A DNA stretch of 64,000 nucleotides. Source: Keratinibaculum paraultunense. GTDB taxonomy: Bacteria; Bacillota; Clostridia; Tissierellales; Tepidimicrobiaceae. Positions 4,228 through 36,701 of this stretch are shown here, piece by piece; within the stretch, counting starts at the first letter, position 1, and the number at the start of each line of letters is the position of its first letter. A model generated the notes under the pieces. It was not told the DNA's origin, made no database searches, and was given only the letters and a program-made list of their open reading frames with translations. The translations under genes were made by a program, and so were the position numbers. The DNA lies in NCBI RefSeq assembly GCF_016767175.1, contig NZ_CP068564.1, positions 124,001 to 188,000 on the forward strand, read 5' to 3'.

Positions 4228-4260
4228 TATTTTTAAAATGGAGGAGGTAATTAAAACAAA

Positions 4261-4629
4261 TTGAATAATAATATGGAAGAAAAGGAAATTTGTGAAGTAA
4301 GTGCAACAGATGAATCTACCCTTAAGAATATAAAAGAAAGTATGTATGATGAAGAAACTATTAATCGTTTAGCCCAGACATTTAAAGCATTAGCAGATCC
4401 TACAAGATTAAAAATAATATATGTATTATCAAAGCAACCTTTATGTGTATGTGATATTGCTAATCTATTGGACATGACTCAATCAGCTATATCTCATCAT
4501 TTAAGACTATTGAGAAATTTAAGACTTGTAAAATTTAAAAAAGAAGGTAAAATGGTAATATATTCTTTAGATGATGATCATGTATTGCAACTATTCAAAC
4601 AGGGTATGGATCACGTAAGACATGACTAA
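4261..4629 (+). CDS. ArsR/SmtB-family metal-sensing repressor, CadC-like
   Basis: Winged-helix repressor of the ArsR/SmtB family, which releases DNA when it binds soft or transition metals. The core (FKALADPTRLKIIYVLS, then CVCDIANLL, then TQSAISHHLRLL) is canonical. The CVC pair plus an N-terminal Cys at residue 11 (EICEVS) resembles the alpha-3N thiolate site of CadC. The C-terminal DDDHVLQLFKQGMDHVRHD carries the Asp/His pattern of the alpha-5 zinc site. Metal specificity (Cd/Pb/Zn) is inferred. The start is probably TTG at 4261, 12 bp after GAGGAGG; ATG at 4273 is too distant. No efflux pump gene is adjacent, which is unusual for this family. Confidence 0.88.
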   Translation: MNNNMEEKEICEVSATDESTLKNIKESMYDEETINRLAQTFKALADPTRLKIIYVLSKQPLCVCDIANLLDMTQSAISHHLRLLRNLRLVKFKKEGKMVIYSLDDDHVLQLFKQGMDHVRHD

Positions 4630-4633
4630 TATT

Positions 4634-4661
4634 AAAAAGGGATACTTATCCCCTTTTTTTC
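4634..4661. terminator. bidirectional intrinsic terminator
   Basis: AAAAAGGGATA / TATCCCCTTTTTTT hairpin between two convergent genes. The stop codon and last codons of the minus-strand comFB gene lie inside the hairpin, so one structure can end both transcripts. Confidence 0.8.
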
Positions 4662-4927
4662 TTATGTTCACATTTACTGCATACTATATCTACAGCTTCA
4701 GTAATTTTAGTTAATACTGTAATTTTTCTTTGCCTGTCTAGTAAAAAGGCTTTTTTCTCTCCTTCACTTGCGGAAGATAAAAAATAAGCAGGAGGAAGAT
4801 TATTTAATGCAGTTGCTTTAATATCATTTTCACAATTCTTATTGCTGCATATATTATATTTTTCTTTCACTTCATTAAAAACTTCATTTACTAGTATTTC
4901 CATGTAATTTTGCAAGTTAACCACCAC
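4646..4927 (-). CDS. comFB: ComFB-family protein
   Basis: Small protein of the late-competence ComFB family. The B. subtilis member lies in the comF operon and its function is unclear; cyanobacterial relatives have been reported to bind cyclic dinucleotides. Hallmarks are NYMEILVNEVFNEV at the N terminus, a NICSNKNCENDIKATALNNLPPAYF core with two cysteines, and a C-terminal CSKCEHKKK motif (CxxC). Together they make a plausible four-Cys metal site. Start choice is uncertain: GTG at 4927 is the longest option, but TTG at 4915 is better placed behind AGTGGTGG. Convergent with the ArsR gene. Confidence 0.85.
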   Translation of the reverse strand: MVVNLQNYMEILVNEVFNEVKEKYNICSNKNCENDIKATALNNLPPAYFLSSASEGEKKAFLLDRQRKITVLTKITEAVDIVCSKCEHKKKRG

Positions 4928-5077
4928 TTTCTAGAAAAAGTATAATGCGATAAATAGGAATAATTACCCATATATTATAGTACTTTAAGTCTACAATGTC
5001 AAATATAAAAATGCAAGTAATATAATTGATTTGATTAATGAAATAAAGTTGGGGTAATATAGGAATAAACAAAAAGC

Positions 5078-5107
5078 TTGACACATTATACCCCTTAAGG
5101 GTATAAT
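5078..5107 (+). promoter_or_regulatory. sigma-A promoter with CsoR/CstR-like operator
   Basis: TTGACA at 5078-5083, an 18-bp spacer, and TATAAT at 5102-5107. The spacer and -10 hold the inverted repeat TTATACCC-CTTAA-GGGTATAA (5086-5106). TACCC...GGGTA palindromes are typical operators of the CsoR/CstR/RcnR repressor family (copper or persulfide sensing). Overlap with the -10 suggests repression. The promoter is certain by sequence; the regulator is inferred, and no csoR-like gene is in the window. Confidence 0.75.
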
Positions 5108-5145
5108 GTATAATGTAAAATTCTTTGTACAAGGGAGGAATATAA

Positions 5146-5376
5146 ATGGCTAATGTAATAATTTATACTAGTAACACTTGCCCATATTGCATATCAGCAA
5201 AAAATTATTTAGATGAAAAAGGGATAGATTATATTGAAAAAAACATTCAAACTGATCCGTCTGCAAGAAAAGAGTTAATGGATATGGGTTATATGGGAGT
5301 TCCTGTATTGATAATTAATGGAGAAGAAGTAGTAGGTTTTGATCAAGCTAAAATTGATGAATTACTAAGTAAATAA
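5146..5376 (+). CDS. glutaredoxin-like / NrdH-type thiol oxidoreductase
   Basis: A 76-residue thioredoxin-fold protein. CPYC is at residues 12-15 (TSNTCPYCISAKNYL) and the cis-Pro loop GVPVLIINGEEVVGFDQ is present, as in clostridial glutaredoxin/NrdH-like proteins. It probably reduces disulfides or handles persulfides in the cytoplasm, with electrons from thioredoxin reductase or low-molecular-weight thiols. The ATG follows AAGGGAGGAA. The gene is monocistronic, between a near-consensus promoter with a CsoR/CstR-like operator and a strong bidirectional terminator. Its partner is not evident. Confidence 0.88.
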   Translation: MANVIIYTSNTCPYCISAKNYLDEKGIDYIEKNIQTDPSARKELMDMGYMGVPVLIINGEEVVGFDQAKIDELLSK

Positions 5377-5387
5377 AGTATAATTAA

Positions 5388-5427
5388 ACAAAAAAGACCT
5401 TTTCAAATTTGAAAAGGTCTTTTTTTG
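5388..5427. terminator. bidirectional intrinsic terminator
   Basis: Inverted repeat AAAAGACCTTTTC / GAAAAGGTCTTTT with A-tract on the left and T-tract on the right. It serves the glutaredoxin-like gene on the plus strand and the DUF1858 gene on the minus strand. Confidence 0.9.
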
Positions 5428-5430
5428 TCT

Positions 5431-5616
5431 TTATTCATTTAAAGCTTTTAATAATTCATCTATATCCAATCCATGAACCATAGCAGCTTCTTCTAGGCTT
5501 TCCATTTGACTTGCAGGGCAACCAATACAGCCTAGTCCAAAATTTAATAATATTTCTACTGCTTCAGGTTTATTACGGATTATTTCGCCTACTAACATAT
5601 CTTTAGTGATTTCCAT
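5431..5616 (-). CDS. DUF1858 CxxC protein (hybrid-cluster-associated disulfide type)
   Basis: A 61-residue stand-alone DUF1858 domain. The pattern TKDMLVGEIIRNKPEAVEILLNFGLGCIGCPASQMESLEEAA is diagnostic, with a CxxC pair (GCIGCP) near residue 30. The family often occurs beside or fused to hybrid-cluster proteins and is thought to be a small redox disulfide or Fe-S-associated module. The ATG follows TAAGGAGGATATAC. It is convergent with the glutaredoxin-like gene, and both are small dithiol proteins. No hcp gene is nearby in this window. Confidence 0.9.
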   Translation of the reverse strand: MEITKDMLVGEIIRNKPEAVEILLNFGLGCIGCPASQMESLEEAAMVHGLDIDELLKALNE

Positions 5617-6194: not shown

Positions 6195-6251
6195 TTGACT
6201 AAATAAAAAAAATAGTGTACACTGTTTTAGTGTACCTATAGGGGGTATACA
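6195..6251 (+). promoter_or_regulatory. selenoprotein promoter and CstR/CsoR-like site
   Basis: TTGACT (6195-6200), a 17-bp spacer and TACACT (6218-6223) form a good sigma-A promoter. Just downstream, at about 6231-6250, is an imperfect inverted repeat, GTGTACCTATAG with GGGGTATAC, matching the TACC-N-GGGTA pattern at 5086-5106. The shared motif suggests a common repressor with the glutaredoxin-like gene. This is an inference from two sites only. Confidence 0.55.
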
Positions 6252-6293
6252 ATATATAACAAATTGAATAATATATAGAAGGAGGTAAGTTAT

Positions 6294-6593
6294 ATGAATA
6301 TTAATATAACTGAAAAAGCTCAAAAAGAGCTTAAAAAAATAATGGAGGAAAATAAAGAAAATAAAAAGCTATTGAGAATATATATAGCAGGTTATGGTTG
6401 AGGTGGCCCATCTTTTGGTTTAGCTCTGGATGAGCTAAAGGATGGAGATAAAAAAGTAGAAGTAGGAGGTTTTACTTTTTTAATAGAAAAAGATTTAGCA
6501 GACACTTTTAAAGGCTTTACCATAGATTATAATGATAATTGGTTAAGACGAGGTTTTAGCATAATTCCTAAAAAGGGAGGATCTCATTGTTAA
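6294..6593 (+). CDS. HesB-like selenoprotein (in-frame UGA = Sec36)
   Basis: A 99-residue ORF read through the TGA at 6399-6401 as selenocysteine: MNINITEKAQKELKKIM..., then AGYG-U-GGPSFGLALDEL, then FTFLIEKDLADTF and GFSIIPKKGGSHC. This matches the HesB/IscA-fold selenoprotein family known from clostridia and archaea, in which Sec replaces the first conserved Cys next to GGPSFG. The ATG follows AGAAGGAGGTAAG at ideal spacing, both halves are in one frame, and a SECIS-like hairpin directly follows the UGA. The C-terminal Cys99 is also family-like. It probably has a redox or Fe-S-related role; the biochemical function is unknown. Ordinary gene callers split or miss this gene. Confidence 0.92.
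6408..6445 (+). promoter_or_regulatory. SECIS-like hairpin of the selenoprotein mRNA
   Basis: The hairpin begins 7 nt after the UGA. The apical stem is TTTAGCTC (6419-6426) paired perfectly with GAGCTAAA (6432-6439) around a TGGAT loop. The outer helix is CCATC (6408-6412) with GATGG (6441-6445). Position, size and a G-containing apical loop fit bacterial SECIS elements, which sit in the coding region just 3' of the UGA and bind SelB. Confidence 0.82.
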
Positions 6594-6612: not shown

Positions 6613-6656
6613 TAGTGTCAAGAATCATAATTAATAATTACTTGACACTATTTTTA
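6613..6656 (+). terminator. intrinsic terminator after selenoprotein
   Basis: TAGTGTCAAG ... CTTGACACTA stem with TTTTTA tail. The 200 bp to the next gene are very AT-rich, with nothing else recognisable. Confidence 0.8.
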
Positions 6657-6854
6657 TATACTACTAAAAGAAAAATAGTAAAAATGATATATGTTTTAAT
6701 TCTATTAATTGGGATATTATTTATATAGGGGGAGTTTAAATTTTAAAATAAAATAAAACTACCCCTATTAGAAAAAATATAATTTAAACTTAAAGTTTAG
6801 AGCTTTTAGGTGTATTTATTTTATAACTATAACTTTACATAAGGAGGGGTTTAT

Positions 6855-7607
6855 TTGGGAGATGTAAATTTATTAAAAAACATAAAGATTCTTTATGTAG
6901 AAGATGAGCCTATAACAAGAAATCAGGTTTGTAAACTTTTAAAAGATAAAGTAGAAAAGGTAATTGAAGCAAAAAATGGGAAAGAAGGAATAGAAAAATT
7001 TATAAAATATAAGCCAGATATTGTTATAACTGATTTAATAATGCCTTATATGGATGGAATAGAGATGGTGAAAGAGTTAAGGGGTAATGGTTTTAATTGT
7101 CCAATTATTATGATATCATCTTTGTCTGATGCTGATACTGTTCTGAAAGCAGTAGACTTAAAAATAGAAAAGTATATGATTAAACCTATTGATGTAAATT
7201 TATTATTGGAAAATTTAATCCAAATAGCAAATGAACTTTTAACGGGCAAAAATGGATTAGCTTTCACGGACAATTCAAAAAACAATTTAGAGATAAAAAT
7301 ACGGGATATATATTCTAATTACTTAAAAAAATTTACTGGAAAAGATGCAAAGTTTATCAAAGCGTTTATAGATGGAAAGCAAATAGAAATATTTTCAAAA
7401 GAAAATCTTACTATTTTAGAAGAAAATTTGTTAGATATAGGTAATTATCATAAAAGTATTGAAATACTAAGGAGAGCATTATATGAACATACAATAGATG
7501 AAGTTGAAAAAGAATTATCTCAGTTGATAGATAGAAAAGTAGTTACAAAAAAAATTGATTTATATCCTAAAGAAAACTTTGAAAGAATAGTATTAGAAAT
7601 TATGTAG
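6855..7607 (+). CDS. orphan response regulator: REC domain fused to DUF2294 (MpsC-like)
   Basis: Residues 1-125 are a CheY-like receiver. The acidic pocket is at VEDEP (residues 15-19), the phospho-acceptor is Asp60 (IVITDLIMPYMDG), MISS lies near 87-89 and Lys110 is in YMIKP. From about residue 145 the protein continues as a DUF2294 domain (IRDIYSNYLKKFTGKDAKFIKAFIDGK, then LRRALYEHTIDEVEKELSQLIDRKVV...). DUF2294 is the MpsC family, linked in Staphylococcus to a cation/bicarbonate uptake system. There is no DNA-binding or enzymatic output domain and no histidine kinase nearby. TTG at 6855 follows AAGGAGGGG. The fused architecture suggests phosphorylation-controlled action of the DUF2294 module; function unknown. 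Confidence 0.82.
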   Translation: MGDVNLLKNIKILYVEDEPITRNQVCKLLKDKVEKVIEAKNGKEGIEKFIKYKPDIVITDLIMPYMDGIEMVKELRGNGFNCPIIMISSLSDADTVLKAVDLKIEKYMIKPIDVNLLLENLIQIANELLTGKNGLAFTDNSKNNLEIKIRDIYSNYLKKFTGKDAKFIKAFIDGKQIEIFSKENLTILEENLLDIGNYHKSIEILRRALYEHTIDEVEKELSQLIDRKVVTKKIDLYPKENFERIVLEIM

Positions 7608-34389: not shown

Positions 34390-35946
34390 TTGGGAAAGTT
34401 AAATCTTGATCAAACAAAGATAGATAGCTCTAGAAATGCAGCAAAGAAAATAGCGGAAGATATGCAAAAATTTATAGATGAGCATACTACTACTTCAACA
34501 GAAAGAACCATAGTTAGATTATTAGGAATAGATGGGATAGATGAAATAGACAAACCCTTACCCAATGTATTGGTAGATAATATCAAAGAAGGAGGAGGGC
34601 TAGAGCAAGGAGCAGCTTATTGGCTAGGAAATGCCATAATACAAACTGGAGATACTCCTCAAGATATAGCAGAAAAAATTGGACGAGGAGAATTGGATAT
34701 TACTCGTCTTCCTATTGCAAGTGAAGAAAAAATTCAAGATACTATATATGAATTAGCTAAAGAAACAGTGGATAAAATAAAACAAAATAAGAATAAAAGA
34801 GATGAATTAATTAAAAGCTTAGGAGAAGGTGAACAACCTTATTTATATGTAATAGTTGCTACAGGAAATATATATGAGGATATAGTTCAAGCTAAAGCAG
34901 CAGCATATCAAGGAGCAGATGTTATAGCTGTAATCAGAACAACTGGGCAATCCTTATTAGACTATGTACCTTATGGAGCCACTACAGAGGGATTTGGAGG
35001 TACTTACGCTACTCAAGAAAACTTTAGACTAATGAGAAAAGCACTAGATGAAGTAGGAGAAGAAATTGGTCGTTATATTAGATTGTGTAATTATTGTTCT
35101 GGACTTTGTATGCCAGAAATAGCAGCTATGGGTGCATTGGAAAGATTAGACATGATGTTAAACGATGCTTTATATGGAATATTATTTAGGGATATAAATA
35201 TGCAAAGGACTATGATAGACCAGTATTTTTCTAGAGTAATCAATGGTTATGCAGGTATAATTATAAATACAGGAGAAGATAATTATTTAACCACAGATGA
35301 TGCAGTAGAGGCTGCCCATACAGTATTAGCTTCTCAATTTATAAATGAACAATTTGCACGAAAGGCAGGAATTCCTGAAGAGCAAATGGGATTAGGGCAT
35401 GCTTTTGAAATGGATCCTGCTTTAAAAAATGGGTTTTTGTATGAATTAGCTCAAGCACAAATGGCTCGGGAGATATTTCCTAATGCACCATTAAAATATA
35501 TGCCTCCTACTAAATATATGACAGGAAATATATTTAAAGGGCATGTACAAGATGCTATGTTCAACATGGTATCCATAATGACAGGGCAAGGCATTCAACT
35601 GTTGGGTATGTTAACTGAAGCTATTCATACTCCTCATATACATGATAGATATCTAGCTATAGAAAATGCCCAATACATCTTTAATAATGCTAGGGATTTA
35701 GGAGATGAAATACTGTTTAAAGAAGATGGGATAATTCAAAAAAGAGCTCAAGAAGTATTACAAAAAGCAGAAGATCTATTAAATGAAATAGCAGATATTG
35801 GTTTATTCCCAACTATAGAACAAGGTAAATTTGGAGGAGTAAAAAGATCCAGAACTGGAGGAAAGGGATTAGAAGGTGTGGCTAAAAAAAGTAGCGGATA
35901 TTTTAACCCATTTATCCCATTGATGCTGGGAGGTGTTAAACAATGA
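34390..35946 (+). CDS. kamD: lysine 5,6-aminomutase alpha subunit
   Basis: Large subunit of the adenosylcobalamin- and PLP-dependent aminomutase that moves the 6-amino group of beta-lysine (or D-lysine) to carbon 5. The 518-residue length and motifs (IVATGNIYEDIVQAKAAAYQGADVIAVIRTTGQSLLDYVPYGATTEGFGGTYATQENF, YCSGLCMPEIAAMG, LKYMPPTKYMTGN) are those of KamD. The start is TTG behind AAAGGAGGCGAAACG. It overlaps kamE by 4 bp (ATGA), consistent with a tight alpha-beta complex. Confidence 0.96.
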   Translation: MGKLNLDQTKIDSSRNAAKKIAEDMQKFIDEHTTTSTERTIVRLLGIDGIDEIDKPLPNVLVDNIKEGGGLEQGAAYWLGNAIIQTGDTPQDIAEKIGRGELDITRLPIASEEKIQDTIYELAKETVDKIKQNKNKRDELIKSLGEGEQPYLYVIVATGNIYEDIVQAKAAAYQGADVIAVIRTTGQSLLDYVPYGATTEGFGGTYATQENFRLMRKALDEVGEEIGRYIRLCNYCSGLCMPEIAAMGALERLDMMLNDALYGILFRDINMQRTMIDQYFSRVINGYAGIIINTGEDNYLTTDDAVEAAHTVLASQFINEQFARKAGIPEEQMGLGHAFEMDPALKNGFLYELAQAQMAREIFPNAPLKYMPPTKYMTGNIFKGHVQDAMFNMVSIMTGQGIQLLGMLTEAIHTPHIHDRYLAIENAQYIFNNARDLGDEILFKEDGIIQKRAQEVLQKAEDLLNEIADIGLFPTIEQGKFGGVKRSRTGGKGLEGVAKKSSGYFNPFIPLMLGGVKQ

Positions 35947-36701
35947 GTCAAGTAGCACAAGTTGACTTAACTAAAGTAAAACCTTATGGGGACACACTAA
36001 ACGATGGTATGGTGCAAACTAGTTTTACATTACCAGTACCCTATGGAGATGAAGCGACTGAAGCAGCTAGGCAACTAGCTAAGAAAATGGGATTAGATGA
36101 ACCATCAGTGGTTTATTCTAAAGATTTAGGCATGAATTTCACTTATTTTATAGTATATGGTAAATGTATTCATACTGTGGATTATACTAAAATAGAAGTT
36201 CCTAAAGTAGATATAGAAGTGATGTCCAAAGAAGAAGTAGAACAATTTATAAAGGATAATATAAAAAGAAATGTAGTTGTAGTAGGGGCTTGTACAGGTA
36301 CCGATGCTCATACTGTGGGAATAGATGCTATAATGAACATGAAAGGTTATGCTGGTCATTTTGGCTTGGAAAGATATGAAGGTATCGATGCTTATAACTT
36401 AGGAAGTCAGGTGCCCAATGAAGAATTAGTGGCGAAGGCTATAGAATTAGATGCAGATGCAATACTTGTATCTCAAGTAGTAACTCAAAAGAATGTTCAT
36501 ATTCCCAATCTAACAGAATTGGTAGAATTATTAGAAGCAGAAGGAATAAGGGATAAAGTAATATTAGTATGTGGTGGACCTAGAATATCCCATGAATTAG
36601 CCAAAGAGCTAGGTTATGATGCAGGATTTGGTCCAGGAACATTTGCAGAAGATGTAGCTACCTTCATAGTAACAGAAATGGGAAAAAGAGGATTAGTATA
36701 G
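35943..36701 (+). CDS. kamE: lysine 5,6-aminomutase beta subunit (B12-binding)
   Basis: Small subunit carrying the cobalamin-binding domain. The base-off DxHxxG motif is DAHTVG with His123. Lys134 (NMKGYAG), eleven residues later, corresponds to the PLP Schiff-base lysine of the beta subunit (Lys144 in the Clostridium sticklandii enzyme). The rest of the Rossmann-like fold follows (ADAILVSQVV, VILVCGGPRIS, GFGPGTFAEDVA). Length is 252. Last gene of the operon. A 45-nt palindrome terminates it. kce and kal do not follow, unlike many lysine fermenters. Confidence 0.96.
   Translation: MSQVAQVDLTKVKPYGDTLNDGMVQTSFTLPVPYGDEATEAARQLAKKMGLDEPSVVYSKDLGMNFTYFIVYGKCIHTVDYTKIEVPKVDIEVMSKEEVEQFIKDNIKRNVVVVGACTGTDAHTVGIDAIMNMKGYAGHFGLERYEGIDAYNLGSQVPNEELVAKAIELDADAILVSQVVTQKNVHIPNLTELVELLEAEGIRDKVILVCGGPRISHELAKELGYDAGFGPGTFAEDVATFIVTEMGKRGLV

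What the first reader, a model, noticed from the sequence alone, without database searches (positions are those of the whole stretch)
6294..6593. Selenocysteine-containing HesB-like protein hidden by an in-frame UGA
The TGA at 6399-6401 interrupts a single 99-codon frame. The residue context (AGYG-U-GGPSFG) is where HesB-like selenoproteins carry Sec, and a two-helix SECIS-like hairpin starts 7 nt downstream. Strong ribosome site, promoter and terminator frame the gene exactly. The family is known, but its function is not, and automatic annotation usually drops it. It implies the genome encodes SelA/SelB/SelC/SelD.
Basis: partly seen in the sequence, partly recalled or inferred. Interest (0 to 1): 0.75.

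Follow-up and report, generated by a model that had tools for sequence, protein, structure and literature searches.

The report
HesB-like selenoprotein in a redox regulon
A small bacterial gene that looks broken by a stop codon really encodes a known but unexplained selenium-containing protein, and a conserved DNA switch in front of it ties it, with its glutaredoxin neighbour, to a group of thiol-redox and sulfur-handling genes, which gives a testable idea of what it does.

Summary
Window 6294-6593 is one 99-codon frame with a single in-frame TGA (6399-6401) at the Sec position of the HesB-like selenoprotein family (TIGR01911, above its cut-off). The closed genome carries selD (itself UGA-containing), selA, selB and tRNA-Sec. 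Of 100 relatives, 79 carry the TGA form and 78 of those have selA; a sel-less relative has Cys there. A SECIS hairpin lies 25 nt downstream of the UGA, with near-invariant synonymous codons (Leu CTG in 45 of 45) and covariation. The gene is an ordinary, unannotated member of a known family.

New here: a CsoR-type operator (TACC-N7-GGTA) sits between promoter and ribosome site in 27 of 27 close relatives. In this genome it has only two intergenic sites: this gene and the glutaredoxin gene 1 kb upstream. In relatives it precedes glutaredoxin, thioredoxin, CcdA, rhodanese/TusA, DsrE-like and ferredoxin genes, not copA, and co-occurs with one Cys-pair DUF156 regulator (50/50 genomes with it, 3/11 without). 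I propose that the selenoprotein works in thiol or sulfane-sulfur redox homeostasis, not as a standard Fe-S scaffold. Effector and biochemistry are inferred, not shown.

The parts
6294..6593 (+). hesB-like selenoprotein gene, 99 codons, Sec36 and C-terminal Cys99
   Evidence: TIGR01911 above cut-off; AF2 model matches IscA/HesB fold
6399..6401 (+). in-frame UGA read as selenocysteine
   Evidence: TGA at the same codon in about 79 of 100 relatives, 78 of them with selA; Cys codon there in sel-less G050
6408..6445 (+). SECIS element: helices 6408-6412/6441-6445 and 6419-6426/6432-6439, apical loop UGGAU 6427-6431, 25 nt after the UGA
   Evidence: meets the published bSECIS model (PMC13188914)
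6232..6248 (+). CsoR-type operator GTACCTATAGGGGGTAT in front of the hesB-like gene
   Evidence: 27/27 relatives; TAC-X9-GTA as in PMC3902906
6195..6223 (+). probable sigma-70 promoter TTGACT-N17-TACACT
   Evidence: a -10-like TATANAATG is conserved at this place in relatives
6280..6285 (+). ribosome-binding site AGGAGG
   Evidence: GGAGG kept in most relatives
6614..6657 (+). probable terminator hairpin with T tract (18-nt loop)
   Evidence: read directly; not called by the scanner
5146..5376 (+). glutaredoxin gene (CPYC active site), proposed co-regulated partner
   Evidence: PF00462; syntenic in relatives
5088..5104 (+). second copy of the operator, ATACCCCTTAAGGGTAT, between -35 TTGACA and -10 TATAAT of the glutaredoxin promoter

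Best explanation
The gene makes a 99-residue HesB/IscA-fold selenoprotein. SelB, guided by the SECIS hairpin, inserts Sec at UGA 6399 (machinery and signal shown; insertion in this organism inferred). It is transcribed from its own promoter, which is blocked by a CsoR-family (DUF156) repressor bound to TACC-N7-GGTA at 6232-6248; the same repressor controls the glutaredoxin gene 1 kb upstream (shared operator shown; binding inferred). The repressor is most likely the Cys-pair DUF156 protein at G000:C1:1175713-1175994, not the copper CsoR beside copA (inferred from co-occurrence). When thiol-reactive sulfur (persulfide, polysulfide) or a similar oxidant modifies its cysteines, the repressor lets go and glutaredoxin plus the selenoprotein are made. 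The selenoprotein then most likely acts as a selenol redox or sulfur-transfer protein, with Sec36 and the C-terminal Cys as a reactive pair that the glutaredoxin can reduce. It is less likely to be a standard three-cysteine Fe-S carrier.
For: Decoding. Fold: (IscA TM 0.75, E 2e-5). Operator: 27/27 upstream regions; only two intergenic sites in 2.3 Mb, hesB-like and glutaredoxin, the third being inside lon. Regulator: 50 of 50 genomes with the Cys-pair orthologue have the motif, 8 of 11 without it lack it (Fisher 5.6e-8); copA's promoter in this genome lacks the site. Regulon content in relatives: glutaredoxin (about 15 further sites), thioredoxin-reductase-like, CcdA-thioredoxin-HesB operon, thioredoxin, TusA-rhodanese, rhodanese, DsrE-like, ferredoxins, CoA-binding. 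No CxC in any of 47 Sec forms, while 42 of 47 end in Cys. Literature: CsoR operators are TAC-X9-GTA (PMC3902906); CstR regulators control rhodaneses and sense persulfides through two cysteines (PMC10318464, PMC5480029).
Against: No binding, expression or biochemical data. The CstR-type fingerprint is not clean: between the two cysteines this genome has Tyr, but most orthologues have His as in copper or nickel sensors, so the effector could be a metal. Some regulon members (ferritin-like, desulfoferrodoxin, flavodoxin) fit general redox or iron stress equally well. The operator control (pattern read backwards) gives about 0.7 hits per strand per genome against about 1.8, so single sites in relatives can be chance. 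The genomes are related, so Fisher values overstate independence. Several more distant TGA forms (G035, G037, G047) have neither motif nor regulator, so the control is not a property of the whole family. A few Sec forms lack the C-terminal Cys.
Confidence: 0.5

Rival explanations
1. A HesB-like selenoprotein that acts in Fe-S cluster assembly or repair, as an A-type carrier with Sec replacing one cluster ligand; its link to a redox regulon reflects the need to rebuild clusters under stress.
For: Same fold and family as IscA/SufA; ferredoxins and other Fe-S proteins occur beside the operator in relatives.
Against: The C-terminal CxC ligands are absent in all 47 Sec forms; all IscA/SufA/ErpA equivalog cut-offs are missed; no isc or suf gene among the neighbours examined. 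An archaeal hesB-like disruption mutant was not impaired in nitrogen fixation (PMC11097638, unpublished observation cited there).
Confidence: 0.3
2. Selenoprotein as above, but the operator belongs to a metal-sensing (copper or nickel) CsoR-type repressor, so the protein is part of metal tolerance, its selenol binding or buffering thiophilic metal.
For: The operator matches copper CsoR type-2 sites; His stands between the cysteines in most orthologues of the regulator; an ArsP-like permease gene carries the site in three relatives.
Against: A separate C-H-C CsoR sits with copA and copZ in the same genome, and copA has no such site; sites in relatives precede redox and sulfur genes, not copper genes, unlike the gut-Firmicutes CsoR regulon of csoR plus copA (PMC4938975).
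Confidence: 0.15
3. The TGA is a true stop or a mutation, and the gene is decayed or two ORFs.
For: Standard ORF calling shows no ORF of 60 codons or more here.
Against: Conserved TGA at one codon in about 79 relatives, conserved downstream protein sequence, synonymous constraint and covariation in the SECIS, complete sel machinery.
Confidence: 0.01

Closest known systems
HesB-like selenoprotein family (TIGR01911; Zhang et al. 2006, PMC1794560)
   Same: Score above the family cut-off, Sec at the position of the first HesB cysteine, UxGP motif, found in anaerobic Sec-decoding Clostridia.
   Different: Nothing in the protein itself. The operator and the glutaredoxin linkage were not found in the family's literature searched here.
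A-type Fe-S carriers IscA/SufA/ErpA
   Same: Fold and Pfam Fe-S_biosyn (PF01521).
   Different: No C-terminal CxC; Sec instead of the first Cys; equivalog cut-offs missed.
CstR persulfide-sensing repressors and their regulons (S. aureus; TTHA1953 of T. thermophilus)
   Same: DUF156 family regulator with two conserved cysteines, TAC/GTA operator, rhodanese, TusA and DsrE-like targets in relatives.
   Different: Regulator gene is not beside its targets; Tyr/His between the cysteines; core targets are a glutaredoxin and a selenoprotein rather than sqr/cstAB.
Copper CsoR with copZA
   Same: Same operator class (TAC-X9-GTA, PMC3902906).
   Different: A separate copper CsoR exists in this genome; copA lacks the site; no copper-ATPase genes among the sites read in relatives.

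Membership tests
HesB-like selenoprotein (TIGR01911) | profile score above curated cut-off | tested here: met
   68.5 bits, cut-off 66.35
HesB-like selenoprotein (TIGR01911) | UGA/Sec aligned with the first conserved HesB cysteine | tested here: met
   U36 aligns with Cys of 1nwb, 2apn and of Cys relatives
HesB-like selenoprotein (TIGR01911) | selenium actually incorporated | not testable with these tools
   needs 75Se or mass spectrometry; shown for the M. maripaludis homologue according to PMC11097638
NCBIfam IscA_HesB_Se (NF038090) | profile score above curated cut-off | tested here: not met
   78.4 bits, cut-off 85; not filed under this model
Sec-decoding genome | selA, selB, selC, selD | tested here: met
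   selA 629 bits, selB 394 bits, tRNA-Sec 77 bits, anticodon tca, selD with in-frame UGA
bacterial SECIS | loop 3-9 nt with G in first two positions, 4-16 bp upper stem, 16-37 nt from UGA, energy -7.5 kcal/mol or lower | tested here: met
   loop UGGAU at 25 nt over a 4-bp stem kept in nearly all; 39 of 45 sequences also pass the energy limit; the lowest-energy fold of the window sequence itself has loop GCUCUGGA at 21 nt, also within the model
A-type Fe-S carrier (IscA/SufA/ErpA) | three Cys ligands, C-terminal C-x-C | tested here: not met
   no CxC in 47 Sec forms
CsoR type-2 operator | 5'-TAC-X9-GTA-3' with G/C tracts near a promoter | tested here: met
CsoR type-2 operator | bound by a DUF156 repressor | not testable with these tools
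   co-occurrence only
CstR (persulfide-sensing DUF156) | two sensing cysteines and no metal-ligand His between them | tested here: inconclusive
   both Cys invariant; Tyr in this genome, His in most orthologues
CstR (persulfide-sensing DUF156) | regulator gene linked to a rhodanese/sqr operon | tested here: not met
   regulator lies with an RseC-like, a ThiF-like and an aspS gene; rhodanese sites only in relatives

The most novel reading that the evidence does not exclude
In the order Tissierellales a Cys-pair DUF156 repressor, distinct from copper CsoR, runs a small thiol/sulfane-sulfur regulon whose core is a glutaredoxin and the HesB-like selenoprotein. The selenoprotein would be a selenol-based persulfide or disulfide handling protein on the HesB fold, giving this orphan selenoprotein family its first physiological role and a selenoprotein gene under a CsoR-type operator.
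Probability: 0.35. Interest if true: 0.65.

Novelty: new member of a known kind. Interest (0 to 1): 0.42.

Why it matters
The HesB-like selenoproteins have been known since at least 2006 without a function. Conserved control together with a glutaredoxin, and in relatives with rhodanese, TusA, DsrE-like, CcdA and thioredoxin-reductase-like genes, turns an orphan into a testable case: find the inducer of one operator and the role of the family may follow. The case also shows that this gene is missed by plain ORF calling and that copper-type CsoR operators need not mean copper.

Tried and rejected
(1) Pseudogene or two ORFs: rejected. (2) An apparent TAA inside the G059 homologue: only the terminal stop of a Cys form. 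(3) The perfect repeat GTACACT-N5-AGTGTAC at 6217-6235: unique in the genome and not kept in relatives, so not an operator by the evidence here. (4) Third genomic operator match at 1857288: inside lon, chance. (5) The long single hairpin (minimum free energy) as the SECIS: not supported by covariation. (6) Rfam: no match to the SECIS at gathering level. (7) copA as a target of the same operator: no site. (8) Papers linking HesB with CsoR/CstR: none found. (9) Two look-ups for the main paper on CsoR-family persulfide sensors: not held. (11) Other TGA-recoded ORFs in the window: none credible.

Full report
WHAT IS THERE. Window 6294-6593 is a single frame of 99 codons interrupted by one TGA at 6399-6401. 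Read with TGA as Sec, the product is an IscA/HesB-family protein: Pfam Fe-S_biosyn 5e-11, NCBIfam HesB_rel_seleno TIGR01911 68.5 bits against a cut-off of 66.35. A related model (NF038090) is just missed (78.4 against 85). An AlphaFold model from 12 orthologues and relatives (mean pLDDT 84) matches IscA, SufA and relatives in the PDB. Plain ORF listing shows no ORF of 60 codons or more here.

IS THE TGA SELENOCYSTEINE? The genome (one closed contig, 2.31 Mb) has selB (394 bits), selA (629 bits), a tRNA-Sec with anticodon tca (77 bits), and selD whose own frame carries a UGA (MTIRLTELTKTSG-U-AAKIG, L047 7029 onward). The order is selD-selA-selB-selC in one cluster. Of 100 relatives searched, 85 have a homologue. 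By my count 79 carry at least one TGA form, and 78 of those have selA over its cut-off. The exception, G074, is a 71% complete genome. Of the 21 without a TGA form 11 have selA (Fisher 2e-7, uncorrected for relatedness). G050 lacks selA and has Cys at the position (PVGCSS, RVGCRG), while congeners with selA have U (PVGUAG). The gene sits in conserved synteny (metG, tatD, rnmV, ksgA ... glutaredoxin, DUF1858, Phage_holin_4_2 family, hesB-like, mgtE, veg) through much of the order. Named relatives are Tissierella, Soehngenia and Gudongella, so the genome very probably belongs to the Tissierellales.

THE SECIS. Across 45 distinct sequences codons +8 to +11 after the UGA are almost frozen: Ala GCT 41/42, Leu CTG 45/45 (CTG is 8.4% of Leu codons in these loci, 1.9% in the window), Asp GAT 42/43, Glu GAG 42/44; neighbouring codons vary roughly as usage predicts. 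They form the stem GCUC-UGGAU-GAGC, loop 25 nt after the UGA with G at loop position 2, inside the published bacterial model (16-37 nt; PMC13188914). The two-helix structure shows covariation (score 0.112 against 0.063 shuffled, 0 of 500; pair 21/35 occurs as GC, UA and AU; two sequences change C-G to U-A inside the apical stem). The single long hairpin that has the lowest energy in the window does not.

THE OPERATOR. Upstream regions of orthologues share one strongly conserved block, RTACCY-N4-RGGGTAY, between a -10-like element and the ribosome site: 27 of 27 hold TACC-N7-GGTA. It is the TAC-X9-GTA operator of CsoR-family (DUF156) repressors; the published Streptomyces consensus is ATATACCCCTNAGGGGTATAT (PMC3902906). 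In this genome the strict pattern occurs three times: in front of the hesB-like gene (6232-6248), in the promoter spacer of the glutaredoxin gene (5088-5104), and inside lon. In relatives both genes keep it.

WHICH REGULATOR, WHICH REGULON. The genome has two DUF156 proteins: a C-H-C one beside copA and copZ, i.e. copper CsoR, and a second with Cys-Tyr-Cys in another operon. Among 61 genomes all 50 with an orthologue of the second (90 bits or more) contain the motif, and 8 of 11 without it lack the motif although several of them keep a CsoR-like protein. The copA promoter here has no such site. I read about 60 further stretches with sites in relatives (Pfam). The sites precede glutaredoxins most often, then CcdA-thioredoxin-HesB operons, thioredoxin, a thioredoxin-reductase-like flavoprotein, TusA-rhodanese, rhodanese, DsrE-like proteins, CoA-binding proteins, ferredoxins and NapH-like Fe-S membrane proteins, an ArsP-like permease, ferritin-like proteins, a desulfoferrodoxin, and a csoR-like gene (names without a Pfam hit, such as DsrE-like, are recognised from the sequence). 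A few lie inside genes and are chance: the backwards control pattern gives 48 and 38 hits against 108 and 109. This content is thiol redox and sulfur relay, not copper.

MECHANISM. Shown: frame, TGA conservation, sel genes, SECIS constraint, shared operator, co-occurrence with one regulator. Inferred: Sec insertion in this organism, binding of the regulator, the signal (thiol-reactive sulfur most likely, metal possible), and the chemistry. The missing CxC of Fe-S carriers in all 47 Sec forms and the Cys within the last three residues in 42 of 47 fit a selenol/thiol redox pair that the co-regulated glutaredoxin could reduce, but Fe-S handling cannot be excluded. CstR systems provide the nearest model (PMC5480029, PMC10318464); the regulator here is not a clean CstR because orthologues carry His or Tyr between the cysteines.

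KNOWN OR NEW. The protein is a new, unannotated member of a known family (PMC1794560; a 75Se-labelled archaeal member is cited in PMC11097638, whose authors state that its function is not clear). The regulatory link was not found in the papers searched. That link raises the interest above a routine confirmation.

Noticed in passing
L047:7029-8060 (G000:C1:795028-796059): selD is itself a selenoprotein gene (UGA at codon 14, SG-U-AAKIG); plain ORF calling starts it late at 7095.
   Followed up: partly
L053 about 4230-5560, L054 about 4797-5540, L057, L058, L059: Several relatives carry two or three hesB-like Sec genes in tandem; in family f19 the Sec is followed directly by Cys (U-C-G-A) and the C-terminal Cys is missing, suggesting a moved resolving cysteine.
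   Followed up: partly
L049, L050, L051: One genus (g26) has a Sec copy and a Cys copy (AGFGCSGPS, Cys-rich tail) side by side, a natural Sec/Cys pair.
   Followed up: no
window 4261-4629 and 5431-5616: An ArsR-family regulator and a DUF1858 protein lie beside the glutaredoxin gene in nearly all relatives; their link to the pair is unknown.
   Followed up: no
window 6217-6235: Perfect inverted repeat GTACACT-N5-AGTGTAC overlapping the -10 element, unique in the genome and not conserved.
   Followed up: yes
window 6855-7607: Response regulator fused to an MpsC domain lies between the hesB-like gene and mgtE; it was not found at the syntenic place in the relatives examined.
   Followed up: no
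window 34390-36701: Two genes that look like the subunits of a B12-dependent aminomutase (recognised from the sequence only).
   Followed up: no
L155 2280-2817: In G048 the same operator stands beside a DUF156 gene and a short Cys-rich peptide gene (CGCGCG), possibly a self-regulated metal module.
   Followed up: no
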